Of a stretch of DNA of 64,000 bases, positions 4,989 through 46,950 are shown one piece after another. The position numbers and the translations under genes are program-made. A model generated the notes under the pieces. The model did no database searches. It saw only the letters and a list, made by a program, of their open reading frames with translations, and had not been told where the DNA came from. The stretch's first letter is position 1. Every line of letters starts with the position of its first letter. Source of the stretch: Brachypterus glaber (lineage: Eukaryota; Arthropoda; Insecta; Coleoptera; Kateretidae); NCBI GenBank assembly GCA_958510825.1, contig OY294048.1:12913589-12977588 (forward strand), written 5' to 3'.

Positions 4989-5242
4989 CTCCCGCACATC
5001 CCTCCTCTCCCTATCACATCCCTCCCCATCCCCCTCCCACCCACTCCACAGCGCCAAACTATGACAGATGCAACTCGCATCAGTGAGCAGAGACTCACTC
5101 CCCCCCAAATTATGACAGATGCAACTCGCATCAGTGAGCATAGACTCACTGCCCCAAATTTCAATTCAGATTAAGTATTTTTTAGATAAATGAGCCATAG
5201 GCTGCGCCTGTCTCTTAAAGACCCAAACAAACTATTGATGAT
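4989..5242 (+). repeat. Dispersed repeat family B, copy 1
   Basis: A 250-bp block from CTCCCTATCACATCCCTCCC to AACTATTGATGAT is nearly identical to 52365-52605. It includes two direct repeats of a module with ATGACAGATGCAACTCGCAT and a tail module with TAGGCTGCGCCTGTCTCTTA. Both copies stop at the same right boundary (ACTATTGATGAT), which suggests a defined 3' end as in a SINE or Helitron-type element. Translations in both frames are artefacts. Confidence 0.7.
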
Positions 5243-7011: not shown

Positions 7012-7200
7012 TATAAAAAAATACTTTATCCAATACATACAGATAATGAGACAATTACCAGCTTTATTTTAAATATATAAACTCAATAATAACACCCGCG
7101 TGGCTTTTACTTTATTGAGTGGATAATTTTGTCATGGGCAATATCTTACTTTACCCACTAGTACCATAAATAACTATTTCTCACTACCATCTAGATAAGT
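7012..7200 (-). repeat. Dispersed repeat family C, deleted copy
   Basis: Reverse complement of 24955-25330 with an internal deletion of roughly 200 bp. Shared blocks are ATCCAATACATACAGATAAT, AACTCAATAATAAC, CGCGTGGC, TTTATTGAGTGGATAATT and CAATATCTTACTTTACCCAC. It forms the left flank of the 354-bp tandem array. Confidence 0.65.
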
Positions 7201-7496
7201 TGACATTACTTAATAAAAAAGCCGACAGTAATAGAAAGTTTATTATTCCATCAATCTATTTTCTAATCATCGTACAGAGTGATATTGGTAGACTGACAGT
7301 TTCGGGTGGTACTATGTGCTTGAGACACACAAGTCTTCAACTTGCTACCATTCAAAGTCTCCAGATAAGGAGAGGTATGAGTAGTTGTCTACATCTAGAA
7401 ATAGATGGCGCACAAGTCTACATCAATCTAATGGCTATATTCCTTTTGCGAGTAAAGTCTAAAAACGTTTTCTTAATCAGCGTGCAGAGTTGACTC

Positions 7497-7541
7497 TTGG
7501 TACTGAAGAGGGCCAGCAGCCCGAAACTGTCAGTCTACCAA
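7497..7541 (+). ncRNA. Hammerhead ribozyme, array copy 1
   Basis: Stem I TTGGTA/TACCAA (7497-7502 with 7536-7541); core CTGAAGA 7503-7509; stem II GGGC/GCCC (7510-7513 with 7519-7522) with loop CAGCA; GAAA 7523-7526; stem III ACT/AGT (7526-7528 with 7532-7534) closed by loop GTC; predicted cleavage after C7535 (GTC). Beyond a 6/4-nt internal loop, the outer stem GTGCAGAGT pairs with ACTCTGTAC in the other copies, but this copy lacks 2 nt there (CACTGTAC), so it may be weaker. Confidence 0.85.
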
Positions 7542-7848
7542 TATCACTGTACGATGATTAGAAAATAGATTGATGGAATAATAAATTAATATTTTTATAA
7601 TTTTGTTTAAAATTAAAAATTTCTGTCCTTAATAATTTTACGTCTAACCACCCGTTAGTGGTACTATGTGCTTGAGACACACAAGTCTTCAACTTGCTAC
7701 CATTCAAAGTCTCCAGATAAGGAGAGGTATGAGTAGTTGTCTACATCTAGAAATAGATGGCGCACAAGTCTACATCAATCTAATGGCTATATTCCTTTTG
7801 CGAGTAAAGTCTAAAAACGTTTTCTTAATCAGCGTGCAGAGTTGACTC

Positions 7849-7893
7849 TTGGTACTGAAGAGGGCCAGCAGCCCGAAACTGTCAGTCTACCAA
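7849..7893 (+). ncRNA. Hammerhead ribozyme, array copy 2
   Basis: Same core and stems as copy 1, with the full 9-bp outer stem I (GTGCAGAGT with ACTCTGTAC, one G-U wobble). Predicted cleavage after C7887. Confidence 0.88.
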
Positions 7894-8202
7894 TATCACT
7901 CTGTACGGTGATTAGAAAATAGATTGATGGAATAATAAATTAATATTTTTATAATTTTGTTTAAAATTAAAAATTTCTGTCCTTACTAATTTTACGTCTA
8001 ACCACCCGTTAGTGGTACTATGTGCTTGAGACACACAAGTCTTCAACTTGCTACCATTGAAAGTCTCCAGATAAGGAGAGGTATGAGTAGTTGTCTACAT
8101 CTAGAAATAGATGGCGCACAAGTCTACATCAATCTAATGGCTATATTCCTTTTGCGAGTAAAGTCTAAAAACGTTTTCTTAATCAGCGTGCAGAGTTGAC
8201 TC

Positions 8203-8247
8203 TTGGTACTGAAGAGGGCCAGCAGCCCGAAACTGTCAGTCTACCAA
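8203..8247 (+). ncRNA. Hammerhead ribozyme, array copy 3
   Basis: Same core and complete stem I as copy 2. Predicted cleavage after C8241, releasing a 354-nt unit from the copy 2 site. Confidence 0.88.
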
Positions 8248-8556
8248 TATCACTCTGTACGATGATTAGAAAATAGATTGATGGAATAATAAATTAATAT
8301 TTTTATAATTTTGTTTAAAATTAAAAATTTCTGTCCTTACTAATTTTACGTCTAACCACCCGTTAGTGGTACTATGTGCTTGAGACACACAAGTCTTCAA
8401 CTTGCTACCATTCAAAGTCTCCAGATAAGGAGAGGTATGAGTAGTTGTCTACATCTAGAAATAGATGGCGCACAAGTCTACATCAATCTAATGGCTATAT
8501 TCCTTTTGCGAGTAAAGTCTAAAAACGTTTTCTTAATCAGCGTGCAGAGTTGACTC

Positions 8557-8601
8557 TTGGTACTGAAGAGGGCCAGCAGCCCGAAACTGTCAGTCTACCA
8601 A
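8557..8601 (+). ncRNA. Hammerhead ribozyme, array copy 4
   Basis: Same core and stems; predicted cleavage after C8595. Confidence 0.88.
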
Positions 8602-8910
8602 TATCACTCTGTACGGTGATTAGAAAATAGATTGATGGAATAATAAATTAATATTTTTATAATTTTGTTTAAAATTAAAAATTTCTGTCCTTACTAATTT
8701 TACGTCTAACCACCCGTTAGTGGTACTATGTGCTTGAGACACACAAGTCTTCAACTTGCTACCATTGAAAGTCTCCAGATAAGGAGAGGTATGAGTAGTT
8801 GTCTACATCTAGAAATAGATGGCGCACAAGTCTACATCAATCTAATGGCTATATTCCTTTTGCGAGTAAAGTCTAAAAACGTTTTCTTAATCAGCGTGCA
8901 GAGTTGACTC

Positions 8911-8955
8911 TTGGTACTGAAGAGGGCCAGCAGCCCGAAACTGTCAGTCTACCAA
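8911..8955 (+). ncRNA. Hammerhead ribozyme, array copy 5
   Basis: Same core and stems; predicted cleavage after C8949. Confidence 0.88.
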
Positions 8956-9264
8956 TATCACTCTGTACGATGATTAGAAAATAGATTGATGGAATAATAA
9001 ATTAATATTTTTATAATTTTGTTTAAAATTAAAAATTTCTGTCCTTACTAATTTTACGTCTAACCACCCGTTAGTGGTACTATGTGCTTGAGACACACAA
9101 GTCTTCAACTTGCTACCATTCAAAGTCTCCAGATAAGGAGAGGTATGAGTAGTTGTCTACATCTAGAAATAGATGGCGCACAAGTCTACATCAATCTAAT
9201 GGCTATATTCCTTTTGCGAGTAAAGTCTAAAAACGTTTTCTTAATCAGCGTGCAGAGTTGACTC

Positions 9265-9309
9265 TTGGTACTGAAGAGGGCCAGCAGCCCGAAACTGTCA
9301 GTCTACCAA
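9265..9309 (+). ncRNA. Hammerhead ribozyme, array copy 6
   Basis: Same core and stems; predicted cleavage after C9303. Confidence 0.88.
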
Positions 9310-9618
9310 TATCACTCTGTACGATGATTAGAAAATAGATTGATGGAATAATAAATTAATATTTTTATAATTTTGTTTAAAATTAAAAATTTCTGTCCTT
9401 AATAATTTTACGTCTAACCACCCGTTAGTGGTACTATGTGCTTGAGACACACAAGTCTTCAACTTGCTACCATTCAAAGTCTCCAGATAAGGAGAGGTAT
9501 GAGTAGTTGCCTACATCTAGAAATAGATGGCGCACAAGTCTACATCAATCTAATGGCTATATTCCTTTTGCGAGTAAAGTCTAAAAACGTTTTCTTAATC
9601 AGCGTGCAGAGTTGACTC

Positions 9619-9663
9619 TTGGTACTGAAGAGGGCCAGCAGCCCGAAACTGTCAGTCTACCAA
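9619..9663 (+). ncRNA. Hammerhead ribozyme, array copy 7
   Basis: Same core and stems; predicted cleavage after C9657. Last copy; the unit ends near 9752, where the sequence diverges after TTTCTGTCC. Confidence 0.88.
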
Positions 9664-9752
9664 TATCACTCTGTACGATGATTAGAAAATAGATTGATGG
9701 AATAATAAATTATTATTTTTATAATTTTGTTTAAAATTAAAAATTTCTGTCC

Positions 9753-11397
9753 GTAGTAATATCAAGCACACTTAGTAGTGATGGATGAAATCAATAGAAT
9801 CAATACAAACAAAACCGTAACTAGACAGAAAAAACGTTTTACCGCTAAAGGACACGAAGTGTCCGACACTTACCTAAGGGGGACACTACTAGTATACTAT
9901 TCTTAATTTTATAGAGTGATTCCATAAAAAAAAAGATTTTTCGAATTGTCACACATATAAATGTCAAAAATATTATTAATAAAATACGATTTTAACTCCT
10001 TGCAGTGCGTTCGGCTAGACGGTTCTTTTAACTCTTTACGCTCTTAAAGCCCCTTTTTCCGTTCGGGTAAGTACATATGGAGTAAAAAGTGTCAGGTCTG
10101 CATCGTTCGACTAAAAAAAAAATTCACTTGGAGTTCACTCTCTATGCACAACCTTCCGAGGTTGGGCTCGCAGAGCACGTTGCTTCTTCTTCTTCTCCAA
10201 TGTAATTTATTATAAAAAATAAGCTTAGGTACTGTGTAGTAAATATTTTGCATACATTTTTTGATAAATAATATTATTCAGTATTGGATTGCAACTCCCT
10301 TGGACGGCCGTACATTCTTAACTTTTTGGTTTGGACTGTAACTCTAGCGATAGCTTTTCTCCTCTCTTCTTTGTTCATTTTAACGAGAGAACAAAAACAA
10401 AAATCGTGGTTTGTGGTCGATTTACATAAAATGAAAGGTTATGTAGGTTATGACAGATTATGTTTACATGCACCATAGATAAACTAAATGCACTTTTAGC
10501 TCTCCGTCGTTCGGGTAGGTCCAATTTGCACCTTAAACTCTGTTCCTGCCCTGCAAACTTCCTACTCCATTTACTCCCTCCCCGGGGCTCTCTAGCCGAA
10601 CGCACTGTTGGTAGTGAGAAAAACGTAATGCGCTACAAACATTTAAATAAGCTTTACCCTTAATGGAAAATTTTGATGACTAAAAAAAAAAAGGTTTTCA
10701 ACACCTCTGAAAAAAGATAGGTAACCTATCTACCTATCTAGTGCTCTAGTTTATTAGTTATTGATCTTTTTATTTTTAAAATGTGAAGGAATGGAAGGGA
10801 ATGTCATTCCCTTAACATTGTCCGATAAATATGAACCTTTAAGGAAAATGCCAGTTCTCGTTTGGACTTTTTGGAATGTAAGGAAAAACCCCTTTATCTT
10901 TGAAAAACAAATACATATTCTAACTCATGTGATAAAAAAACGGCCAAAATTATATTACACAATGTTTTTTAGTTCAAAAATATTTACGAGGAGACCCAAG
11001 TAGTGGGTTAGAACACAAACCTGACAAATATTTTTTTCATCAAGGGCGTAATTTTGAGGCAAAAAGTCTCTATTTATCCTTAACAGTCTTTAAACAAATC
11101 TTTATTGTCCCTATTAATAAGCGCTGAAGACTTTTTTTACTTGCCATCAACCTACGAGTTTTGGTTTGGTGAGGTGCAAATATACATACAAGGCTTTTTT
11201 TAAGGTCCAAGTGTACGATACACTTTCAAATTTCTAATTTTTGAGAATAAAACTCTCATTGCTCACATAATAGGGTTAGCTTGTTCCTAAATTGAAAAAT
11301 TAACTGGGAATTGGGAATTCCTATAAAAGTTAATAGGGTAGATACCTAAGTTTATGTTGTGTGTTTTTATTATTTTAAATTCCTTATTAAATATATA
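9753..11397. other. Intergenic, no gene seen
   Basis: AT-rich. A short (CTT)4-type tail at about 10182-10198, preceded by CCTTCCGAGGTTGGGCTCGC, resembles the end of a SINE or LINE copy and recalls the (GAA)n tail at 35370. ORFs at 10284-11003 are short, lack family similarity and have no splice or promoter context. Confidence 0.4.
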
Positions 11398-20400: not shown

Positions 20401-20810
20401 TATGACATTATATTAAAGGTTGGATTCACTATATATATATATATAGTTAAATTAACAATACTAAACAAAATAATTGGATAAAGTTTTTGTGTGTGTAAGT
20501 AATTGATATGACTTATTGACCTGGACGAAAAGATTTTTCTACCTTTAAGAAAAAATAAATAAACTTACATTTTAAGAACATTAAATAGAACACTTATTTG
20601 GCTTAACACAATAACATTAAAATATAAACTTTGGCATCAAAATTAACAATCAAATATAATATGGTCGGGAATTTAGAGTTAATACGTCTGCAGGCGCAGA
20701 AAACAATGCGCCTGTGCTTTCGCGCGAATCACCAAACGTAGTCCATTTTCATTTAAACGCCAGCGTTTCATCGACAACAATGCTTATAACTCTATTTCCC
20801 GATCATTAAA

Positions 20811-21990
20811 TACAGGGTGTATTTGAAATAGCGTAGGAAATTTTAACAGGTGATTCTACATGATAAAATATGACAAAAAGTTCCTATAAACATATGTCTA
20901 AAAATGCGTCATAAGAGAGCTACGCCCCTTTGAAATTGGCTAAAAAAATCGGTTTTTATTTAATAACTCAGGAACTCTTTGAGATATATTAACGAGGTTT
21001 TGCACGTGAATTAATCCTAATAAGGCCCATCTTTGTATGTCATTTTCACGTACTTATTTAAACCAGGGGTGTGCGAAACGGGGGGGGCCTTATCAGTTTT
21101 TTGTCCCAAACTTTTTTCTGTGTAACTTTTTTGCAATTTTATTTTTGAAATATGATTCCTCAGGTCAAAATACATAAAAAATGTACTCTTGTTGTAATAC
21201 TGTAGGATTAACCGTTTTCGAGAAAAGTTCATTTGAAGGTGAAATTTCACGGTTCGAGGACGAAAAATTAAATACTAAAATGTCGAAAACCAAAATTTTA
21301 ACGATGCAATGTTATTCTACATCAAAAACTAAGAAAAAAAGTTTCCATACATGTAGGTCGAAAAAACGCTTTTAAAGCTACCATAGCCCTTTAAAAATGG
21401 TGCATATTTAGGAGACCATAGCTCCATTAGGATTGATTTTTGGAAGTACCTGTATATGAGGTTTTTTTCCTAGTTTTTAATGTACATTCGCCCTGCATCA
21501 TTAAAATTTTGATTTTCAACATTTTAGTATTTAATTTTTCGTCCTCCAACCGTGGAATTTCACCTTCAAATTAATTTTTCTCGAAAACGGTTAATCCTAC
21601 AGTATTACAACAAGAGTACCTTTTTTATGTATTTTGACCTGAGGAATCATATTTCAAAAATAAAATGGCAAAAAAGTTACACAGAAAATAGTTTGGGACA
21701 AAAAACTGATAAGCCTCCCCCGTTTCGCACACCCCTGGTTGAAATAAGTACATGAAAATAACACATAAAAACGGGTCTTGGTAGGATTAGTTGACGTGCA
21801 AAACCTCGTTGATATATCTTAAAGGGTTCCTGAGTTATTAAATAAAAACCGATTTCTTTAGCCACTTTCAAAGGGGCGTAGCTCCCTTATGACGCATTTT
21901 TAGACATATATTTATAGGAACTTTTTGTCATATTTTATCATGTAGAATCACCTGTTAAAATTTCCTACGCTATTTCAAATACACCGTGTA
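20811..21990. mobile_element. 1.2-kb foldback element with ~550-bp arms
   Basis: Starts TACAGGGTGTATTTGAAATA and ends with its inverse (TATTTCAAATACACCGTGTA). The two arms are mirror images over most of their length, including AGCTACGCCCCTTTGAAA, GGTTTTTATTTAATAACTCA, CCAGGGGTGTGCGAAACGGG and a GTAATACTGTAGGATTAACC block, leaving only a short spacer near 21400. The two ORFs in the arms are mirror copies of each other and not genes. A diverged relative is at 40938-41644. The element lies immediately 3' of the atonal-like gene. Confidence 0.88.
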
Positions 21991-22006
21991 TAACTAACCC
22001 AAATTA

Positions 22007-22396
22007 TTAACGTAGCTGTTGAACAGGATCGTCTAATAAATCGTATAAGGCTGTGATATATGTTTGAGCCATTTGAAGGGTTTCGTATTTCGATAACTGT
22101 CTATCTTGTCCTAGCTGAGGCAGGAAAGTCCTGAGCCGATCAAAAGCCTGGTTTAGGTTTTGCATTCTCCTGCGTTCTCTAGCGTTCGCAGCAAGACGTC
22201 TTTTTTTCAACACCACCGGAGTAACACGCGTTTTTTCCCTTCCAATAGATTCGTGATTTATGCAGTTTGGTTGGTAATTTTCTTCAGAATAACTATCATA
22301 ACTCGAGGCGGAAGATGCAGATCCCCAACCACTGGTAACAACACTCTGTTGCGGTGCAAGCATGTACAAGTAACCGTAAGATTCGGAGGAGTCCAT
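22007..22396 (-). CDS. ato: Atonal-family proneural bHLH transcription factor
   Basis: Single-exon gene of 129 aa. Residues 64-121 are a complete bHLH: basic region [20 protein letters not shown], helix 1 [10 protein letters not shown], a loop, and helix 2 [28 protein letters not shown] and the [12 protein letters not shown] variant are those of insect Atonal rather than Amos or Cato. As an E-box-binding partner of Daughterless, Atonal specifies photoreceptor and chordotonal precursors. The N-terminus [13 protein letters not shown] resembles the start of fly Atonal (MSSSEIYRYYY), which supports the ATG at 22396 with context AACCATGG over longer non-ATG readings. The linker to the bHLH is much shorter than in flies. 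The protein ends 8 residues after helix 2, and a foldback transposon begins 16 bp past the stop. Orthology to atonal is inferred; family membership is certain. Confidence 0.9.
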
Positions 22397-22680
22397 GGTT
22401 AACGCGATGTATTTTTTGGAAATTCGTAAAAACGACTTTACACTATTAGGTGAACAGTAAAAATGATGTTGAAAACTACCTGTTGGTCCTTTTATGGTCA
22501 AAACATCATCCCCTGTCCTCTGGAGGGGAACGGTTGCTCGTACCGCCCTTTGGCGCGTGCCTTCCGTCCAATAGGCGCCAGGATAAGACCTCTAGAGGAC
22601 CCACTATTATAATACAATATATTGTATGTTCCAATTATGATTATGCCATATGACGGCCAATACGAAAAACTTGTGTAACC
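22397..22680 (-). promoter_or_regulatory. Presumed 5' flank/promoter of the atonal-like gene
   Basis: GC-richer than its surroundings. The minus strand has an ATTGG (inverted CCAAT) near 22570, GGCGCC palindromes, a CCTCTAGAGG palindrome near 22590, and a TATTATAATA sequence near 22610 that could act as a TATA element. No transcription start can be fixed by eye. Confidence 0.3.
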
Positions 22681-22739: not shown

Positions 22740-23500
22740 TTAAACTAGGATATACGTACCTATATCCTAGTTTAGTAAAAAAAATGAAAAAAAAAAAACT
22801 TCAAAAAAATTAACAATTAAAAAAAGATTTTTTTTTAAACAAAAAAAATCAAAAATACATTTTTCAAAAAAAAAAACTTTAAAAAAAAATTCAAACATTT
22901 TTTTTTCAATTTTCTTTTTTGCTAAAAAAGAAAAATTTTTGAAACAAAAAAAAAGTTCAACCCCCCATAACTTTTTTTGTTTTTGGGGGAGTTAATTTCA
23001 AAAACAATAGGGATCTTTCCCTCATAGAACTTGATTTTTCTTAAAAAGAGTCGATCGGATAATTGTTTGTTTGTTTATTTGTTTAACCTCGTACTATTCT
23101 ACTTAATTAAGCATCCCCTAAGTCCAGGACTTGTGTGGGCTAGTAGTAGAGGGAACCACCGGCTTATACTGACTTTCGAACCAGTTTCTAGGGAGTGTCC
23201 GTTTCACTTATCGCCTTCGCCAAATTTCAATTATTAATTAACTGAAAAAGGCAAATCGGCGCCAGTGAGAATCGAACTCACGATAGTAGACTTGCTATAC
23301 ATACGCGCTAGCCACTACGCTATGCCTCCCATTCGTTCTTGAGTTATTGTGTTAACTAAAATCGTGACATCAGACGGATCTACGGACAGACGAACATTTT
23401 CAATGTTTCTTATTTTTTCATAAAACACATTTGTATCCAAGAAATTTTTGTCTAGAAAGTTTTTTGGAGATTTTTCGAAATTCAAAACTACCGACGAGTG
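22740..23500 (-). repeat. Dispersed repeat family A, copy 5 (carries a SINE)
   Basis: Same block order as 830-1400: GTTCAACCCCCCATAACTTT, TTGTTTTTGGGGGAGTTA, CATAGAACTTGATTTTTCTT, GTCGATCGGATAAT, then after the SINE GTTCTTGAGTTATTGTG and CAGACGGATCTACGGACAGA. The SINE at 23058-23330 interrupts it. Confidence 0.7.
23058..23330 (-). mobile_element. tRNA-derived SINE
   Basis: On the minus strand a tRNA-like head (23330-23258) has an A box TAGCGTAGTGG with D-stem GCG/CGC, and a B box GAGTTCGATTCTC in a perfect 5-bp T-stem (GTGAG/CTCAC). A body with CTGGTTCGAAAGTCAG follows, then a tail AAACAAATAAACAAACAAAC. A second copy of the body and tail, with a body block of about 118 bp essentially identical, is at 30844-30962. 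Insertion into repeat family A is visible by comparison with 14860. The likely target duplication is ATTGTT/ATTCGTT. Transcription would be by Pol III with LINE-supplied reverse transcriptase (inference). Confidence 0.75.
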
Positions 23501-24954: not shown

Positions 24955-25330
24955 AAACAATAGTTATTTATGGTACTAGTGGGTAAAGTAAGATATTGCC
25001 AATGAGAAAATTAACCTGCGAGGCGTTAGCCAAGCAGGTTAATTTTCGAGAGGGCAATATCGGTTTACCCATGAGTGCCATACAAGGTTTATCCAATAAA
25101 TAGCTTAGGAATTCATATTTTTATTAAAAATTTTAATGACATTTACAAGAAAATAATTTGACAAGTGACAGTTGAGTGGGTAAAATAAATAATTATCCAC
25201 TCAATAAAGAATTAGCCACGCGGGGGTTATTATTGAGTTTATCTATTTAAAATAAAGTTGGTAATTGTCTTATTATCTGTATGTATTGGATAAAAATAAT
25301 TATATTAACAATTTGATTAAAAATAAAAGC
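24955..25330 (+). repeat. Dispersed repeat family C, full copy
   Basis: TTATTTATGGTACTAGTGGG, GCAATATC, an internal AACCTGC...GCAGGTTAATTTTC inverted pair, GAGTGGGTAAAATAAATAAT, CCACGCGGGGGTTATTATTG and ATCTGTATGTATTGGATAAA. It matches the reverse complement of 7012-7200. No ORF. Confidence 0.6.
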
Positions 25331-25883: not shown

Positions 25884-28800
25884 CTAAACTAATCCGTATT
25901 TCTTAATAAGATTTTTTTCGTGGTAATTTTCATCAATTTTTTCATTAAAATAGACATCACGGACAGTGAGGTCACCCTGTATGTACACGGTATCTATTTT
26001 ATCCGGTACGGTTCTGTACTTGAACTCGCCGATTAGCTTGCCGTTGATCCAGAAGGAGAAAAACTTGCTTTCCCTGCGAATCGCAATGCTGAAGGGATCA
26101 CCAGCCAAAAACGGGAACCTTCCGGAGCATCTTTCCTCTTGGTCCCATTTCCCGTTTAGCCAAGAGTTTCGAACTATTACGCCATGACCATCTTTCGCTT
26201 CTAATATAATGACTGTATTAATTTTTAGGAAAGCAAGACATTTTTGTTCTTTTTGATCATTAAAAAAAAATCAAAAAAATGACTACGTTTACACCTAAGT
26301 TTATACAATAAACAACTACCGTAGGCGTGGTATTGCTTAACCTCTTTACAGTGATTGACCTCTATAGAGGCAAAAAACGTTCGTGCCGTTAGTGACCGCT
26401 ATAGCAGCATCTAAAATTATCAGTTACCATTAGTTTATTTTCCATGATTTTGTAACACCATGGGGTTTTTGGGGTCGCTGATCACGAATCTGATGCCAGT
26501 TTTCCAAAATTCAAAATGGCGGATCCAATATGGCGGATTAGATTTTTTTAAGTTGCTCGGATTTGCTTTAAACTTGGTACTCGGGGGTTTTGGGGGTCGC
26601 TGATTACGAATCTGGTGCCAGTTTTCCAAAATTCAAAATGGCGGACCCAATATGTCGGATTAGATTTCTTAAAGTTTCTCGGAGAATTTATTAGATCCGC
26701 TATTTTGAATTTTGGAAAACTGGCACCAGATTCGCAATCAACGACCCCAAAAACCCCCGAATACCAAGTTTCAAGCAAATCCGTGCAACTTTAAAAAATC
26801 TAATCCGCCATATTGGATCCGCCATTTTGAATTTTGGAAAACTGGCACTAGATTCGTAATCAGCGGCCCCAAAAACCGCCGAGTAACAAGTTTCAAGCAA
26901 ATCCGACCAACTTTAAAGAATCTAATCCGTCATACTGGATCCGCCATTTTGAACGCTAACTTCTGACCTCGGATTCAGATTCAGCGACCCAAAAACATAC
27001 AATATAAAAACAAGTTTTTTCATAAAAAAAAAAAAATCCGCACATTTTTGGCACGAAAACTTTATTTTCACTGTGAAGGGATTAATATCCATTAAAACCA
27101 AAGCGTTTACAAAACCAGAATATGTACCGAAAATATTACCAACATTCAGAAAAAACACTACTTTCTGCTTTTTATTCAAGTGTATGAGGTAATTTGTTTT
27201 TTTTTTTGCTTCGCATTATCGGTATCTATAAATCTTTACGGTTAATACGACCTTTTTTCACGGCTAAATCCCGATTAGTAACTCTAACCCTGTTGTTCAA
27301 GAGGGTTAAATTGATTAATCCCGAATCGGGATTCCCGATTAATAATTACTCGGGATTCCCGATTAATAAATACTCGTAAATAGCGAAGAAAAGGGCGTTT
27401 ATACGGAAGTTAAGTACCATATTAATATTATGGTATTATAATAACTACGGTAGTTAAAAAAGTCCAGTCAAATAATAGTTAGTTTTTCACCGGGACGTAA
27501 GGGGTGTCCGCTATCTTGAATTTTAGGGGTGAGTTGCTTAATATGCATCTTACGATAAAAATGCATATAACCAATTTTCTTAAAGAGGAAATTTCCAACA
27601 TTTTTTTATTATATTAATGACCATTGAGTTAATTCAAAAATAGCCATGTTGAAGGTGATATTGTTTTTTTTTTTTTCATTTTTTTTTCACCGAAACAAAA
27701 CACTTATGACAATGCATAATATATAAAACTTATAGAGAATTTCAAGAGCTACAAGTTTGCTTATAACCACTTTTATCCTCCGATGAATAATTTGGCTTAA
27801 AAATCGAAAAATCCAATTTCACCCCCATTTTTGAATATAACTCGATTGTTATTAATATATTAAATAAAAGTAAAAATTGATTCAAACAAAAGTTGTTGAA
27901 AATTTTTTTCTTAACAAAATTGGTTATATACATTTTTATCGTAAGATGCATATTTAGCGAGATAACCGCACTCACCCCTAAAATTCAAGATAGCGGACAC
28001 CACTTACGCAAATCACCCGATGAAAAACTAACAGGAGTATTCTGTTACTATCCACTACCACCCTTTAAAATATCAGCCCGTGTACATTTATTGCAATTTT
28101 CCGTTATTTGACTGCACTATTAGCCCAAGTAACATATTAGCTACATAGTATTTCTTACCGCTCTTTCGCAGCAAAATTGCAGCCATATGGCTGTAACTTT
28201 GTTGCGAAAGAGCGGCAAGAGATACTCTATATATAGCTATAGCTACTGTGTTATTTGGTAGGTCTCATGTAAACATAGTCATGTTCAACAATTCTGACAA
28301 AAGTGACCTATATTTTAAAATAGTACGTACCAAATCTAGGATTAATATGGAGATGAATAATGGGATGAGGCCATAAACCAAATCCTTCTTGCAAATTGAT
28401 GTAAAACGAATGAGGAAGGATTCTCACTCGGCCATATATTTCTAATTGCCCCCCTTCTTTAAGCCCCTTTGGTAGCTTACGCATAAATGGCAGTTTCTAA
28501 AACAAAAAAAAAACAACTTTGGATTTAAGGTTCACAACAGTCAGAGCCGGATTAATAGTGCAGTGGGCCCTGAGCCGCATAGTTTCTAGGGCCCCCCTAT
28601 TATCAACTTTTAAACCTATTGTAGTTTTTACTACTTCCATTTGGAAAAGGCACTGCTCGTTTTGGTGCCCTTGTCGTTCTTGGGGGATTATAAATAAATA
28701 AAGTATAAACTATTGTATGAGGCTTTTCTATAGTTGGGGGCCTATAGATGGTATGTTTTGTTTTAGATTTTGTGCACAAGAATGGTTAAAATAGGCCCCT

Positions 28801-31800
28801 TGAAGGTATAATTCCCGAGTAAAAAAATAACAAATGCTATTTTGCTTTTGCTTAGTCTCCATATTTCTTTGGATCTTTAAGGGTATTTTCTGAGAGTCGA
28901 TGATCATGATGATTTTATGCATTATTACTATTTTTTTAATATTCAAATTTTTACCCAAACAGTCTTGGCTCATTTGCGGACCAACCTTTATATGAACTTT
29001 TTTTAATATTTTTGGATGCAGAATCACCTCTTATTTATTTTGGTATGGCAGTTATTACTCACTACAGGAGCGAAAGGTATTTTTAAACATCTGCTAGGAC
29101 ATATATGTCCCAACAGGAGCGAAAGGGTTAAAACTAAAACCGAACTAATACTGAACTAATTCTTAACTAATTACCTGGTCAGTATCAGAGAGGTTATCCA
29201 GTCCAATACCCGAAGGGACGGAAAAAGCATCCAATCCATTTTCCGGGAATGCATTAATTTTCTTGAAATCCACATTTTTCACTTCAACGTTGCCCCAAAC
29301 TTCCAAAGCCTTGATTTTCAAAGTATCATAAGATTTATTGACATAATTGCATACATACTGATTATTGATCGATACGAAATATTCATTTTTGATTGCGAAT
29401 ATCTCGATCACAAAATCAGAATTTGCTTTTAAATTTAGATCATCAAATTTGCAATTAAGCGAATTCTCTTCTGTACCCCAGTGGCCTGAAATTCTTTTGT
29501 TTCTGACTACACACTTTTGGGCTATGCGGGGGTTTAGGTGGAAAGCTATGTCGGCATTTTCGTCCTTTTCCGACACAAAGTTTACGCCAAATCTGTAAAA
29601 TCAAAAATGCTGTCCACAAATTACCTAACGCAATTTTTCAAAAAAAAAATACCTCCTCCCTTTGTCAAAACCTGTCACATTTAACCCTCCGTTTACCAGG
29701 TGAAAAAAAATTACGTTATTAAACCCCAATGGCGATTTCTCCCGTTAGATTAGACAGGGACAAAAGTTCTACCCAAAAAGGATAGAAGACATACATACAC
29801 TCCCACTTCCACCCAACCAAACAAATTCTGTATTTGTTCTTTGTTGAACAAATACAATATTTACTTGGCCGGGCGAAAAGTGTAACTATATTATTTTTAG
29901 TAAAGAAATTACTGGCGCCATCTAAATTTTAGTAGAATTATCTTATTCTACAGATTCACATTAGCTATGTTCGTTCGTGCCGCTCAGTGCTACACTTTCC
30001 GGCCAACCAAATAAATACTGTATTTGTTGTATGAAAAACAAATATGTACAGTATTTATTTGGTTGGCTGGAAAGTGTAGCACAAATGAGATAGAGATAGG
30101 GCAGACGTCTTTTGTTTCATAATTCTAGCTCCATATAAAATACACAGAAAAAAAAATAACAAACACCGTTTATTTCAATAAAAATGATTGTATGATGATT
30201 ATACTTATATATTTAATAAACTTTACTTGGATAATAAAAAAATAAAAAACTCTTTTTAATATTCTGTGAAACTTTATTAAAAAATGCAACTTCAAAGTTT
30301 CACTGCGAAAAAAATGGTTCATTCAAACATAAGCAGCTTTGACACAAAGGTCTAAAGTAATCCATACAAACGTCAGTCAATAAAATTACTCGCATGGAGT
30401 TTCCAGGGAGCTTCCCAATAAACTTCCATGGGATGTCCCATATTCAGCCCTTGGGAGCTTTCAGCCAGTGCGAAATGTCTGCATTGGCCTTAAAGAGCTT
30501 TCGGGTCGTTAGTCCTATAATACTCCAATAATTTGCATATAAGACTCCCACAATATGGCAATAATTTATTTATTTATTTGCTTGAAAAATTATACAACAG
30601 CATGGAGAGCCCCAAATAAGAAAATTCAAAATGGCGGATCCAATATGGCGGATTAGATTTTTTAAAGTTTCTCGCAGAATTTAATCCGCCATACTGGATC
30701 AGCTATTTTTAATTTTGGAAAACTGACACCAGATTCGTAAGGGAACGTTCAAGTATTACGTAACGCAATCATTTTGGACCCCCCCCCCCTGTAACGCTAT
30801 TTTCCTATACCATTAACATGGGCGTAACACTCCAAAATTACATGTTTGTTTTAACCTCGTACTATTCTACTTAATTAAGCATCCCCTAAGTCCAGGACTT
30901 GTGTGGGCTAGTAGTAGAGGGAACCACCGGCTTATACTGACTTTCGAACCAGTTTCTAGGGCGACCCAACAATATATATTTTTTCAAAAAAAAAAACGAA
31001 TTTCAGCAAATTTTTGGCACGAAAAATTTATTTTCTGCACTGCACTGTGAAGGGGTTAAAAACATCTAGCTTTGTCTGTTTTTGTTCAAAAAAATAAAAA
31101 CAAAACTAAGGATATTTAATTTTTTTGCGATAATTAAACAATAAGAAAATATAAGTCAAATGATCTTTAAGATTATAATAATAATTATTGATCAGCATAT
31201 TTTTTTCTTATTTAACCGATCTTGTATCTCTTATAATAACGGAGATAGCTTGGGGTCGAAAAATATTCATCCTATCTTAGGCGCAACTAGGGGGGGGGCT
31301 TGGGCGCTCTTAGACCCCCAAATTTTGTCAAGCACTCCCCCCCCCCCAAAAAAAAAACAATCTATAAAATTAAAATTACGCATATATTTTTACTCTTTTT
31401 GAGTTTGTTTTTAAATTATTGTTTTAATTTCACCCTGTATATGTTCTTTTGGAACGCACCCGTGATTTGCGAGACTAGTATACGCATGCGCTGAATGTTG
31501 TGTTTAGTAATTTAAAACTTCCCTATAATATATAATATTTTTTGAGCAATTTAAAAAAATCTTTTATATAAGTGCTAAATTAATAAAATACAATAATAAT
31601 TAACTTAATTATAAGCAAAAAACTCTAAAAATATGAGTTTTACCCCATTCTCACCTACACCCAATCGTTTACCCCCAAAATCTCTTCTGAATATGATAAC
31701 AAACAATATGCAAAAAACCGCTTGTCGTTATATTTTTTAGAAATGGAGTTATCGAGTTTACACCCAGACAGACGGACGCAAAAAATTTTTTCACTGATTT

Positions 31801-35539: not shown

Positions 35540-38500
35540 ATGGATTTTAGTCGAATGATTTCAGATGAAAATGAACATCAATATTTTGGATTTAGTTCAA
35601 CTGAATTAATTATAGATAGTAAGTATAGTAGTAAATCATCATCAGTTATCACTGATCACTTATCAGTCCTAAAAGTGGTTATGAGCGAACTTGTAGCTCT
35701 TGAAATTCTCTACAAGTTTTAAGCATTTTCATAAGTATTTTGTTACAGTTACAGTGGGTGCTGAAAGTCGAGTTGTGCTTTCTGTGACCACACCAAAGTA
35801 CCTATGAAAATTTATAATATATGAAACTTATAGAGAATTTTAAGGGCTACAAGTTTGCTCTTATATGCATAACCACTTTTATTGTCTGATGAATAATTTG
35901 GCTAAAAAATGGAAAAAACCAATTCCACCAACATGGCTATTTTTAAATTAACTTGATCTTTATTAATATACTAAAAAATATATCCAAAAAAAATATGTTC
36001 GAAATTTCCTCTTTAACAAAATTGGTTATATGCATTTTTATCGTAAGCAACTCACCCCTACAACTCAAGATAGCAGACACCCCTTACACAAATCACCTGA
36101 AGAAAAACTAACAGAAGTGTTCTGTTACCATCCACTACTACCCTTTTAATACCAGCCCATGTACATTTATTGCAATTTAAATTTATTATTTGACTGGACT
36201 ATTAGTTTTTTCTGTATTTAGAATCAGTTTGTTTTTTTTTTAATCCAGTTGTTAATGGCAAAAAGAAGTGTTTCAGTGTCTGATAATAAATTTCTGATCT
36301 TACTAGGAAATTCAAGAGCAAAACTAATTAGTATTTGTTCTTCATTTTGAAGAGTCACGCATAGGCCATTTATGAATATAATAAAAAGTAGGGGTCCAAG
36401 GATGCTTCCCTGTGGGATCCCTGCTTCAATATTTTTAATATCCAATAGATATTTTATAAAATCTTCAATGATTTGTACCTGTTGAGTTCTATTTGCAAGG
36501 TATGATTTTGGCCACTTAAGTGCCAGTCCCCTGACACCATACCTGTAAAGTTTTTCAAAAAGGATGCTATAATTTAAGCAGTCAAATGTTTTATTTAAGT
36601 CCAAAAGGATACCTAAGTTTTTTTATTCTCAAAACCCTCCAGGATATTGTGCAGGAGACTGAACACAGCATTTTCATCAGACTTGCCTTGCAGGTAACCA
36701 TGTTGATTATCATTAAAGAGTTTGTATTTATTAAAGAAATTTATAAATTTGGGCAAAAATTGTGTTAAGCCTCACATATTTTGTCCGACTAGGCACGCCT
36801 CTGGATAAATTCAAAAAAATAAATTAACCTAAACTTATTGCCCTTATTAATACTAGTATACATGCAAAACCTCGTCGCTCTAGCTTAAAGGCTACAAGAG
36901 TTCTTAATTAAAAACCATATTTTTATTATAATTTTAGAGGCGTAGCTCCCTTAGAACTCGTTTTCGAACCAACCTTTATAACGTAGAATCACCTCTTAAA
37001 TTTCTCGAACTTAATTTTGAATAACCCTGTATATAGCAGCGCTATATACTATTGTGCTAAGTTTCTTTGGGAAAAATTCGGAATAATGAATATTTTTAAA
37101 TAAAAATGCAATTTTATTTGTGTTCTAGTTGAAAAAGCAATATCATGCTCATTAAAAGAAAGTTTAAATGCATTCCAAGAAACAGCAGAAAAAGAAGCAC
37201 AGGAGAAAAATATTCCATTTGACAAGGAAAATTTTGAAAAGAAAATACAGCAAGTTTTTGATATTTACATTGAAAAGGCCAAAGAGCCTTTTAAACTGAT
37301 CGAGGTAAGCAAACATTTTTTTAGTTTAAATACCTATATGATTTTTTTTTTTTTGAAAAACGTTAATTTAACATTGTTAAATTAACAATTTTACCATAAA
37401 TAATAAAAAATAGCTATTGTAAAGAGTAATATTTTTTTCCTACGACCTAGTTAGTGCTTATTGCCATGACAGCGGTCGGAAAGTGACAGTCGGCTGCTGT
37501 CAGGGAATGAGTAAAAAGTCAAACACAAAACGTCAAATTTACAAATTAATTTTAAGAAAATTTTTGCAGTTTTTTAATGTTAGGTCGTAACAAAAATAGT
37601 ATACGCACCTCGACGCAAACCTATTTCATTGCACTACGAGTGCTTTTTTTACTCAGCTACACCTTGTTAAAAAATAAGCCCTCTCATGCACTGAAAACTA
37701 GGTTCGCTTATTTAGTGCGTAATATACTATTTCATCCTACACAAGGTTAAAATCTGTTTCCCGGCTAGACGGGAGAAAATACAAAAATAGATGGCGCAAA
37801 ATGTTTAACTACATTTTTTTTGTATTTTGGGTCATTTAATTAAATTTTATTAAAAAATTATTTAGTACCTAATACATATAGTAGGGAAAGTCAGGGTTAA
37901 CTGGGCCGCTTTTTTTTTCATATCGAGTTTTTGAAAAACCTGTAAACAATTTTCAAATATTTTCTTTAGCAAAAGGTAGATTATTACTATAGTTAGAACA
38001 ATAAACCAGTTTACCACATAGGGCAGGGTTAACTGGGCCACAACTCAAGGTTAACTGGTTCACCAACAAAAAACATATTATGCTGTAATTAATGTCAATA
38101 AAAACGATTTGAAATCAAATAAAATTTAATTTTGACATAAAAATAGACAATATAATACGTAAAATAATAGATATATCTCAGGTTTAACTGGTGTGGGGTT
38201 AACTGGACCTGGTCTAGTTAACTTAGAATTAATTAATATTGACATAAGTGATATTAACCCCGGAACAGTTAACCCTGAGTGACACCACTGAATGAAATCA
38301 TAAAATTTTAAAACTTAAAAAGATGTTAGAAGGCGGCAAGTATAGGGACACTAGATCTAGGTCTTAAGTTAGTAAGGCTAACTTAAGACCTAGATCAAGA
38401 ATAATGCGATGTTGTCGGGTTTACGATAACAAATAATTCCTAAGTTTTTAATTTGTTTTTTCATTTTGTTCTTTATTAACAAACAATACAGTTTTTATCA

Positions 38501-45177: not shown

Positions 45178-46577
45178 TACCGGTAATTTTTTTTTAGTTA
45201 CAAAACGATTTTACAAAAAAAAATAAGTCACTATATTTTAAAAATAATGAATTATATAAATGTATTTCTTTTTTAAATAAATATCGATCGAATAACATCA
45301 CACTTTTATTAATGTTGACACAGTTCTGGTGCAATGGAAGATTTCTCTCAATTTTATGAGCAAGTCCAAAAGGTGCTACTTAAATTGACTGTAGTAAAAA
45401 CTATGACCGGGGCCAAAAGTAGAGAGGTAATAAGCTGTCCAATTGTTTTTAAACGATGACATTGCAGTTGCCCACTCTGAGTTGTCCTAACGCGACAATC
45501 AAAACCGGAATTCGAGTTACTCTAGTAACTTTTAGTAAAGTAAAAACTGAATTATAAAAATTGCGTTGGGTTATGCAATGGTACAAAATGAGAATTAAAA
45601 TTATGACCTAATGGAATAACTTGAGTATCAAACATATAAAGTTGATCATTCAAATCCAACTGAGGTGTAAGTACCAGCTGCGAATACGGCTGCAATTGGT
45701 CAATTTTTATCGTTTCCATATTTTGTAATGGAATCAAATTTTGTAACGTTATAGTCTGGGTGCTGTCGGATTTCATATCGGGACTGTAATTTGACAATAT
45801 ACTTACAGTTTCACCCATATTTTTCCTAGATTCACTCTTAATCAGACTGTTGTCTAAAACTTTGATAAAAATGTCTTGTAATTTTTTTGTAGTTACAAAA
45901 CGATTTTACGACAAAAAAATAAGTCACTATATTTTAAAAATAATAAATTATATAAATGTATTTCTTTTTTAAATAAATATCGATCGAATAACATCACACT
46001 TTTATTAATGTTGACACAATTCTGGTGCAATGGAAGATATCTCTCATTTCTATCAGTTTTATGAGTAAGTCCAAACGGTGCTACTTAAATTGATTGTAGT
46101 AAAAACTCTTTATGACTGGGCCAAAAAGTAGAGAGGTTATTAGCTGTCCAAATGATGACATTGCAGTTGCCCACTCGGAGTTGATCTAACGCGACAATCA
46201 AAACCGGAATTCGAGTTACTCTAGTAACTTTTAGTAAAGTAAAAACTGAATTATAAAAATTGCGTTGGGTTATGCAATGGTACAAAATGAGAATTAAAAT
46301 TATGACCTAATGGAATAACTTGAGTATCAAACATATACAGTTGATCATTCAAATCCAACTGAGGTGTAAGAACCAGCTGCGAATATGGCTGCAATTGGTC
46401 GATTTTTATCGTTTCCATATTTTGTAATGGAATCAAATTTTGTAACGTTATAGTCTGAGTGCTGTCGGATTTCATATCGGGACTGTAATTTGACAATATA
46501 CTTACAGTTTCGCCCATATTTTTCCTAGATTCACTCTTAATCAGACTGTTGTCCAAAACTTTGATAAAAATGTCTTG
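45178..46577 (-). repeat. Two ~700-bp tandem copies of terminal exon plus 3' flank
   Basis: Units of about 699-700 bp (about 45178-45878 and 45879-46577), with the parental unit at 46578-47277. Each holds the last ~101 codons of the gene's final exon (45552 and 46251 mark the stops), then the 3' flank with ACCGGAATTCGAGTTACTCT and CGATCGAATAACATCACACT. The copied reading frames are intact and their proteins identical to each other, and to the parent except Thr for Ser at one site (GETVS/GESVS). The left part of the exon and the zinc finger are not copied. Confidence 0.9.
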
Positions 46578-46950
46578 TAATTTTTTTGTAGTTACAAAAC
46601 GATTTTACGACAAAAAAAATAAGTCACTATATTTTAAAAATAATAAATTATATAAATGTATTTCTTTTTTAAATAAATATCGATCGAATAACATCACACT
46701 TTTATTAATGTTGACACAGTTCTGGTGCAATGGAAGATTTCTCTCATTTCTATCAGTTTTATGAGTAAGTCCAAACGGTGCTACTTAAATTGATTGTAGT
46801 AAAAACTCTTTATGACTGGGCCAAAAAGTAGAGAGGTTATTAGCTGTCCAAATGATGACATGGCAGTTGCCCACTCGGAGTTGATCTAACGCGACAATCA
46901 AAACCGGAATTCGAGTTACTCTAGTAACTTTTAGTAAAGTAAAAACTGAA

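What the first reader, a model, noticed from the sequence alone, without database searches (positions are those of the whole stretch)
7225..9752. 354-bp satellite in which every monomer encodes a near-ideal hammerhead ribozyme
Seen directly: seven copies, each with core CTGAAGA + 4-bp GC stem II + GAAA + 3-bp stem III with triloop + GTC, and a stem I of 6 bp, a 6/4-nt internal loop, then 9 bp (GTGCAGAGT with ACTCTGTAC). All conserved core positions and the A-U and C-G pairs at the base of stem III are present. Known precedents are newt Sat2, schistosome SM-alpha and Dolichopoda pDo500 satellites and metazoan retrozymes, with units of similar size. Inference: the transcript self-cleaves into 354-nt monomers that could circularise and be re-inserted. 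This insect family may be undescribed.
Basis: partly seen in the sequence, partly recalled or inferred. Interest (0 to 1): 0.92.

Follow-up and report, generated by a model that had tools for sequence, protein, structure and literature searches.

The report
Beetle ribozyme repeat with Penelope-style insertions
A 354-letter non-coding repeat in a beetle, each copy carrying a self-cutting hammerhead RNA motif, appears to be a recently active jumping element, and the scars at its insertion sites resemble those left by Penelope retrotransposons, its suspected but unproven mover.

Summary
The array is real: 6.9 direct copies of a 354-bp non-coding unit, seven with an intact type I hammerhead core. 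It is not an ordinary satellite. At least 39 dispersed short arrays lie in the same 648-Mb beetle genome; 120 of 128 variants are private to one locus. They look like retrotransposition products. In 26 of 39, exact 11-33-bp duplications flank the insert (35 of 1482 mismatched pairs reach 10 bp). In 30 of 39, a head-to-head inverted partial unit abuts the array's 5' end. Arms start mostly at two template sites about 45 nt apart, A (~281) and B (~327), one of each in 23 of 23 two-armed inserts with such duplications. Two Penelope-like loci of this genome, chosen for their head-to-head layout, show 12-13-bp duplications and 58/42-bp end offsets, like the published Penelope 'tail' and two-strand priming (PMC3846280, PMC11167929). 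Best reading: a metazoan retrozyme inserted by Penelope machinery, so far only proposed (PMC7229834). 'Near-ideal' is overstated: no hammerhead hit at Rfam threshold, and a core-blocking fold is 8.1 kcal/mol better. Cleavage, RNA circles and the enzyme are untested.

The parts
7227..7238 (.). left target-site duplication AGTAATAGAAAG (partner 9755-9766, 10 of 12 identical)
   Evidence: exact 7-mer found, chance 1.8% for such flanks; 12-bp extent read; exact 11-17-bp duplications in 25 of 39 loci plus one composite
7239..7306 (-). inverted partial unit (68 bp), head-to-head with the array; outer end at start site A (unit ~282)
   Evidence: such an arm in 30 of 39 loci
7306..9752 (+). direct array of 6.9 units of 354 bp; 3' end at start site B (unit 325 by eye; BLAST runs on to 333 with mismatches)
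7503..7535 (+). hammerhead core copy 1, cleavage predicted after C7535; outer stem I lacks 2 nt
7855..7887 (+). hammerhead core copy 2, cleavage predicted after C7887
8188..8260 (+). hammerhead copy 3 with both segments of stem I (core 8209-8241, cleavage predicted after C8241)
8563..8595 (+). hammerhead core copy 4
8917..8949 (+). hammerhead core copy 5
9271..9303 (+). hammerhead core copy 6
9625..9657 (+). hammerhead core copy 7
8646..8692 (+). segment between reverse-transcription start sites A (unit ~281) and B (unit ~327) in copy 4, the counterpart of the Penelope 'tail'
   Evidence: start-site clustering
9755..9766 (.). right target-site duplication AGTAATATCAAG

Best explanation
It is a non-autonomous, non-coding retroelement of the metazoan retrozyme kind. 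A multimeric transcript carries one type I hammerhead per 354-nt unit (inferred to self-cleave, perhaps as paired hammerheads, and to be ligated into circles). A Penelope-like reverse transcriptase/endonuclease cuts AT-rich DNA with a stagger of about 13 bp. The two target strands each prime on the RNA, one at site A (~281) and the other at site B (~327). The two cDNAs run towards each other, one long (several units, needing a circle or an uncut multimer) and one short, and are joined head to head, giving TSD - inverted arm - direct array - TSD. Shown: units, cores, dispersed copies, duplications, two recurrent start sites used one per side, the same architecture in two Penelope-like loci of the genome. 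Inferred: RNA cleavage, circularity, the identity of the enzyme, second-strand steps.
For: Dispersed copies: 39 arrays of 1.5-14.2 units examined; 12 of 39 have no difference from the consensus at unit positions 1-275; 120 of 128 variants are private to one locus. Duplications >=10 bp in 26 of 39, against 35 of 1482 mismatched flank pairs. Inverted arm in 29 of 39, plus L026 re-read as L047 with a 13-bp duplication. Start sites: 35 of 39 array 3' ends lie at unit 281-299 or 327-340, and 21 of 24 inverted-arm outer ends at 281-288 or 328-344 (counted; Rayleigh p ~4e-14 and 4e-8), while array inner starts are spread (p 0.35) and inverted-arm inner ends only weakly clustered (p 0.014). A/B pairing: 24 one-of-each, 3 same-class, Fisher p 3e-4; 23 of 23 one-of-each among two-armed inserts with duplications >=10 bp. 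Targets with 12-nt flanks are 79% AT (27 targets; window 68%). Penelope-like loci: L071 (813-aa frame with RT and GIY-YIG) has an inverted copy, direct copies, a 12-bp duplication and a 58-bp end offset; L072 13 bp and 42 bp. [quoted passage not shown] a recombinant Penelope protein cleaves and extends both strands in AT-rich DNA from internal start sites whose interval is the tail (PMC11167929, main-text section). Circular-fold energy of the unit z -5.0.
Against: L071 and L072 were picked because the listing already showed opposite-strand neighbours with long frames, so their inverted arms are no random sample; random 60-nt windows share a word of 10 bp or more in 87 of 4000 trials. The A and B ranges were set after seeing the data and tested on the same loci. 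No sequence of the retrozyme was found in the 22 GIY-YIG loci apart from a diverged piece in L054 and AT-rich matches, and the strict hammerhead descriptor found none there, so the partner is not identified. No hammerhead hit at Rfam threshold. The core-blocking fold is 8.1 kcal/mol better than the hammerhead, versus 0 for a S. mansoni-type control, though 181 of 500 random hammerheads of this architecture do as badly. Hammerhead positions are not better conserved than the rest (0.48% vs 0.40%). Pfam found no RT in the L072 frame. 9 of 39 loci show no adjacent inverted arm (two of them composite), 13 of 39 no duplication >=10 bp (two recovered; the window has 7 exact). The authors of PMC3846280 explain inverted pLTRs by self-priming on an antisense template, not by two-strand priming. 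LINE twin priming (recalled) can also give 5' inversions. The PAc hammerhead was dispensable for insertion in vitro.
Confidence: 0.82

Rival explanations
1. Retrozyme mobilised by a LINE-type reverse transcriptase; the inverted arm is LINE twin priming.
For: 11-17-bp duplications resemble those of LINEs; 15-bp TSDs of Nematostella repeats were likened to LINEs (PMC4918200 passage). A reverse-transcriptase fragment (RVT_1) of undetermined type lies in the window at 36227-36622.
Against: The two strands start at two recurrent internal sites used one per side, close to the documented Penelope tail signature; no consistent poly-A or other 3' tail is seen at the array ends (read); two Penelope-like loci of this genome show the same architecture.
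Confidence: 0.1
2. Ordinary satellite DNA spread by unequal crossing-over, with the hammerhead a passenger.
For: Tandem units; within the window units 2-3 and 4-5 share the same two variants in alternation, variants seen in no other sampled locus, so local exchange has probably occurred.
Against: 39 dispersed short arrays, 26 with target duplications and 30 with head-to-head arms, with recurrent ends.
Confidence: 0.03
3. DNA transposon or Helitron with an internal tandem repeat; the 68-bp inverted piece is a terminal inverted repeat.
For: Inverted repeat at one end of the window copy.
Against: Inverted arms vary from 46 to 450 nt and their inner ends vary widely along the unit; the outer ends of the two arms differ by about 45 nt in most two-armed inserts, so they are not matching terminal repeats.
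Confidence: 0.02
4. The hammerheads are inactive relics; the element is simply a short Penelope-dependent SINE-like element whose RNA is never circular.
For: Blocking fold; no Rfam hit at threshold; uncut multimers would also allow long arms; the PAc hammerhead was dispensable for insertion in vitro (PMC11167929).
Against: The consensus keeps a full core with 4-bp stem II and a 15-bp two-part stem I; 125 of 135 full-length copies pass a strict core pattern; chance of such a motif is low.
Confidence: 0.2

Closest known systems
Metazoan non-LTR retrozymes (Cervera and de la Pena 2020, PMC7229834)
   Same: Type I hammerhead in tandem non-coding units of 150-450 bp, GC below 50%, strongly self-paired RNA, Penelope-like elements in the same genome.
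   Different: Here the insertion anatomy is resolved; the parts read (1-4 of 6, supplement not seen) propose Penelope or LINE mobilisation but describe no inverted arm and no paired start sites. Circular RNA is untested here.
Penelope-like elements with pseudo-LTRs, inverted pLTR and tail (PMC3846280, PMC11167929)
   Same: Tandem copies, shorter head-to-head copy at the 5' end, short target duplications, AT-rich targets, two template start sites some tens of nt apart, hammerhead in the unit.
   Different: No protein coding; unit of 354 bp instead of several kb; hammerhead has a stem III and a long stem I; no sequence homology to the Penelope-like loci inspected beyond core motifs.
Dolichopoda pDo500 satellite (PMC2837043)
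   Same: Insect tandem repeat with a hammerhead; a double hammerhead has been proposed there too, but one in which stems I and II, not stem III, pair between copies.
   Different: About 500-bp unit making up about 5% of a cricket genome; insertion footprints do not appear in the passages I saw.
Plant LTR retrozymes (PMC4918200)
   Same: Non-coding hammerhead retroelement with RNA-circle model.
   Different: Type III hammerheads, LTR/PBS/PPT and 4-bp duplications there; type I and mostly 11-17-bp duplications here.

Membership tests
Hammerhead ribozyme | conserved core CUGANGA ... GAAA ... UH with three helices | tested here: met
   7 of 7 window units; 125 of 135 full-length genome copies by a strict pattern
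Hammerhead ribozyme | Rfam covariance-model score above gathering | tested here: not met
   (best RF03152, 21.3 of 56.3 bits). No positive control with a known metazoan hammerhead was run
Hammerhead ribozyme | hammerhead is the preferred secondary structure | tested here: not met
   8.1 kcal/mol above the best fold; tandem double hammerhead 7.8 for two
Hammerhead ribozyme | loop I - loop II tertiary contact | not testable with these tools
   internal loop in stem I and loop II sit at the same distances (6 and 4 bp) as in the S. mansoni-type control; contacts not computed
Hammerhead ribozyme | self-cleavage | not testable with these tools
   needs transcription assay
Metazoan retrozyme | tandem units of 150-450 bp with type I hammerhead, GC <50%, no coding region | tested here: met
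   354 bp, GC 36%; no frame of 110 aa or more in the array
Metazoan retrozyme | dispersed, with target duplications longer than 4 bp | tested here: met
   26 of 39 with 10 bp or more
Metazoan retrozyme | highly self-paired monomer RNA | tested here: met
   circular MFE -93.3, z -5.0, 0 of 200 shuffles as low; but 64% paired, below the 'above 70%' quoted in PMC4918200
Metazoan retrozyme | linear and circular RNA in tissue | not testable with these tools
   no RNA data available
Metazoan retrozyme | absence of LTR, PBS and PPT | not tested
   no dedicated search; array ends are the A/B sites, not LTR ends
Penelope-type insertion | inverted partial copy at the 5' end | tested here: met
   30 of 39 loci; also L071 and L072, which were chosen for this
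Penelope-type insertion | two template start sites separated by a 'tail' (30-40 bp in print) | tested here: met
   A ~281 and B ~327, about 45 nt; L071 58 bp, L072 42 bp; slightly longer than in print
Penelope-type insertion | sequence kinship with an autonomous Penelope-like element | tested here: not met
   no convincing match in 22 GIY-YIG loci; the genome search scored 150 matches of 419 candidates, so most were not inspected
Satellite DNA | long arrays at few places without insertion footprints | tested here: not met

The most novel reading that the evidence does not exclude
Insertion is a paired-priming event on one RNA: a Penelope-like enzyme dimer loads the two 3' ends of a staggered cut onto two fixed sites of the same circular RNA (A and B, about 45 nt apart), one per strand, and the long arm is made by rolling round the circle. 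The hammerhead's blocking fold (core CUGA with UCAG of the stem III hairpin) acts as a switch that keeps the circle closed, with cleavage restored in tandem double hammerheads or by the bound protein.
Probability: 0.3. Interest if true: 0.88.

Novelty: new member of a known kind. Interest (0 to 1): 0.7.

Why it matters
How animal retrozymes move was left open in 2020; Penelope-like elements were named as candidates on grounds of shared hammerheads, tandem layout and co-occurrence (PMC7229834). A family with dozens of near-identical inserts, clean target duplications and two recurrent start sites turns that into a mechanistic claim that can be tested with one recombinant protein, and it suggests a one-site-per-strand rule that also bears on how Penelope elements themselves insert. 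Among the papers listed by the searches made (several lists were cut, for example 10 of 14 and 12 of 61) none appeared by title or abstract to describe these footprints on a retrozyme, nor a beetle hammerhead repeat; most subscription papers are not held and no supplements were seen.

Tried and rejected
Other copies in the window: none beyond the array and its inverted piece. Relatives elsewhere: exact patterns in viral contigs and prokaryote contigs, and blastn against phage records, all without match. An empty site in the window: the left flank repeat at 7025-7178 has a second copy at 24959-25294, but homology stops before the insertion point. Copying of a single monomeric RNA circle as the source of the 708-bp alternation (units A B C B C A A'): the two variants repeated in units 2-5 occur in no other sampled locus, so later local duplication is simpler. 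Selection on the hammerhead among copies: not seen. Pile-up of arm ends at the hammerhead cleavage site: not seen, 1 of 29 inverted-arm inner ends and 0 of 39 sense starts lie within 5 nt. ARAGORN found no tRNA.

Rows handled separately: L026, whose 5' end lay outside the first fetch, was re-fetched as L047. L018 and L041 are composite loci; longer fetches (L049, L050) show inverted arms further upstream. L020 was mis-bounded; one search gives a 13-bp duplication and an A/B pair. L012 and L020 could not be classed; L010 and L032 were B/B and L022 A/A there. The 39 loci are those that the genome tool scored (39 of 471 first-look candidates), chosen by best match, so they favour close and full-unit copies and are no census. 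The window's 12-bp duplication and the one-of-each verdict for the 23 inserts were read by me. Of 29 arms, 16 cross the cleavage site by script, and L024 and L046 do so by wrapping round the unit.

What I saw of each paper: PMC7229834 parts 1-4 of 6; PMC11167929 the main-text section and passages; PMC3846280, PMC7761336, PMC6155905, PMC4918200, PMC2837043, PMC7118274, PMC10085705 and PMC8969392 passages only; all others search listings. LINE twin priming is recalled.
Full report
WHAT WAS CHECKED. The described array exists: 354-bp period, 6.9 copies, 99% matches, seven hammerhead cores. A structural descriptor finds those seven and nothing else in the window on either strand, and practically nothing in random sequence of the same dinucleotide make-up. 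I did not run a known metazoan hammerhead through the same tool as a positive control.

HOST. The atonal-like bHLH gene in the window has its best named relatives in beetles, with the nitidulids Brassicogethes (83%) and Aethina (81%) on top (family placement of these two genera is recalled).

THE RIBOZYME. All conserved core positions are met. Stem III is 3 bp with a triloop, ACU-GUC-AGU, an almost palindromic stretch that can pair with a second copy (eight pairs and one U-U), so tandem double hammerheads with a longer stem III are possible, as described for newts (passage); the double hammerhead proposed for pDo500 is of another kind. But the core CUGA can also pair with UCAG of that hairpin: this fold beats the hammerhead by 8.1 kcal/mol, while a S. 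mansoni-type control folds straight into its hammerhead. The double hammerhead lies 7.8 kcal/mol above the best fold of a two-copy construct, that is 3.9 per unit. Nearest-neighbour energies ignore the loop-loop contact and core stacking, and 181 of 500 random hammerheads of equal architecture are as disfavoured, so this lowers confidence in efficient monomer cleavage without excluding it. Among 256 stem III and triloop variants only 4 are as strongly blocked. The whole unit as a circle is markedly stable, z -5.0, with 64% of bases paired.

THE GENOME-WIDE FAMILY. One answered genome search listed matches on many contigs; I fetched 38 further array loci and analysed them with the window copy, 39 in all. 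Direct arrays have 1.5-14.2 units. The tool scored 39 of 471 candidates and loci were picked through full-unit matches, so shorter and older inserts are under-sampled by design. Of 128 variants at unit positions 1-274, 120 occur in one locus only, and 12 of 39 loci show no difference from consensus at positions 1-275. That is what a recent star-like burst from one master sequence would give. Variation is no lower in the hammerhead than elsewhere (0.48% vs 0.40%), as expected if inserted copies drift after landing.

INSERTION FOOTPRINTS. In 29 of 39 loci a partial unit in opposite orientation abuts or overlaps the 5' end of the direct array, and one more appeared when a truncated fetch was extended. 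Exact flanking duplications of at least 10 bp, the commonest length being 13, enclose the whole structure in 26 of 39 loci; the same search on mismatched left and right flanks gives 35 of 1482. One of the 26 (L018, 33 bp) is a composite locus; the other 25 measure 11-17 bp. The window copy has an imperfect 12-bp duplication, of which 7 bp are exact. In the two-armed loci with duplications, inverted arm and array were therefore most likely inserted together.

TWO START SITES. The 3' ends of the direct arrays and the outer ends of the inverted arms mark where reverse transcription started on each target strand. 35 of 39 array ends lie at unit 281-299 or 327-340, and 21 of 24 outer ends at 281-288 or 328-344; trimmed of the duplications they centre on A near 281 and B near 327, about 45 nt apart. 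The array 5' ends are spread over the unit (p 0.35) and the inner ends of the inverted arms only weakly clustered (p 0.014). Inserts use one of each: 17 have B on the inverted arm and A on the array, 7 the reverse, 3 the same class (Fisher p 3e-4), and 2 could not be classed. Among the 23 two-armed inserts with a duplication of at least 10 bp, all 23 are mixed. The window copy is mixed too (A on the inverted arm, B on the array). The class limits were set after seeing the positions. Targets with flanks are 79% AT, with A-rich bases before the cut (A in 20 of 27 at position -2 on one side, T in 19 and 17 of 27 at the first two mirrored positions on the other); no background test was made, and shared bases at the edges blur the exact cut. 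Arms read through the predicted hammerhead cleavage point in 18 of 29 inverted arms, without an excess of ends there, so those templates were not cut linear monomers; circles and uncut multimers both fit.

PENELOPE. A GIY-YIG search of the genome scored 150 of 419 candidates, nearly all above the family cut-off. I inspected 22 loci: 20 short ones from the search and 2 longer fetches picked because the listing showed opposite-strand neighbours with long frames. Twelve of the 22 hold a minimal hammerhead-like core of the CTGANGA...CGAAACGTT kind, and none of 42 retrozyme loci nor the window does; that pattern was drawn up, and the strict descriptor with stem III found none in the 22. L071 carries an 813-aa frame with reverse transcriptase and GIY-YIG domains, direct copies 3,228 bp apart, a head-to-head inverted copy, a 12-bp duplication and outer ends offset by 58 bp. 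L072 shows an inverted arm, a 13-bp duplication and a 42-bp offset; Pfam found no reverse transcriptase in its frame. Random 60-nt windows share 10 bp or more in 87 of 4000 trials. L071 also holds a hammerhead-like core with GAAACTGCAGTC, close to the retrozyme's GAAACTGTCAGTC. These traits agree with the literature: Penelope copies with direct pLTRs, a shorter inverted pLTR, short duplications and an optional tail (PMC3846280, passages; its authors prefer self-priming on an antisense template); and the purified Anolis enzyme, which cuts both strands of AT-rich DNA, extends both, and starts inside the template at two sites whose interval is the tail (PMC11167929, main-text section). In that work the two strands did not differ in start site overall; the one-per-side pairing seen here is not described in the parts I read.

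MECHANISM. The simplest account is a retrozyme whose RNA is taken by a Penelope-type enzyme, with one target strand primed at A and the other at B, and head-to-head joining of the two cDNAs. Penelope mobilisation was proposed for metazoan retrozymes on indirect grounds (PMC7229834, parts 1-4 of 6 read). The present data are footprint evidence for it. They do not identify which element does it, and no shared sequence was found in the loci inspected beyond core motifs, AT-rich matches and a diverged retrozyme piece.

NOVELTY. As an object it is a new member of a known kind. What seems new, as far as the listings seen here go, is the resolved insertion anatomy and the paired-start rule.

Noticed in passing
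45183-47286: A roughly 700-bp tandem triplication that includes a repeated coding-like segment (frames 45552-45905, 46251-46604 and the end of 46951-47652), 93-96% identical.
   Followed up: no
20810-21991: A 1.18-kb stretch that is 89% its own reverse complement, just next to the atonal-like gene at 22007-22501; a further partly palindromic 122-bp repeat block lies at 26464-26877.
   Followed up: no
23257-23329: Rfam calls a tRNA (38.5 bits) but ARAGORN does not; perhaps a tRNA-derived repeat.
   Followed up: no
25884-26270 and 29163-29600: Two galactoside-binding lectin (galectin) segments on the minus strand.
   Followed up: no
4999-5242 and 52365-52606: 97% identical dispersed repeat pair with internal periodicity of about 50 bp.
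   Followed up: no
L054:325-361: An 84% identical piece of the retrozyme unit (226-262) in a GIY-YIG locus, probably a diverged older family.
   Followed up: partly
L071:6359 and 9587: Penelope-like element with a hammerhead-like core whose stem III is the perfect palindrome ACTGCAGT, one base short of the retrozyme's ACTGTCAGT; two retrozyme units show exactly that shortened form.
   Followed up: partly
L024: Largest array in the sample, 14.2 units with a 349-nt inverted arm.
   Followed up: no
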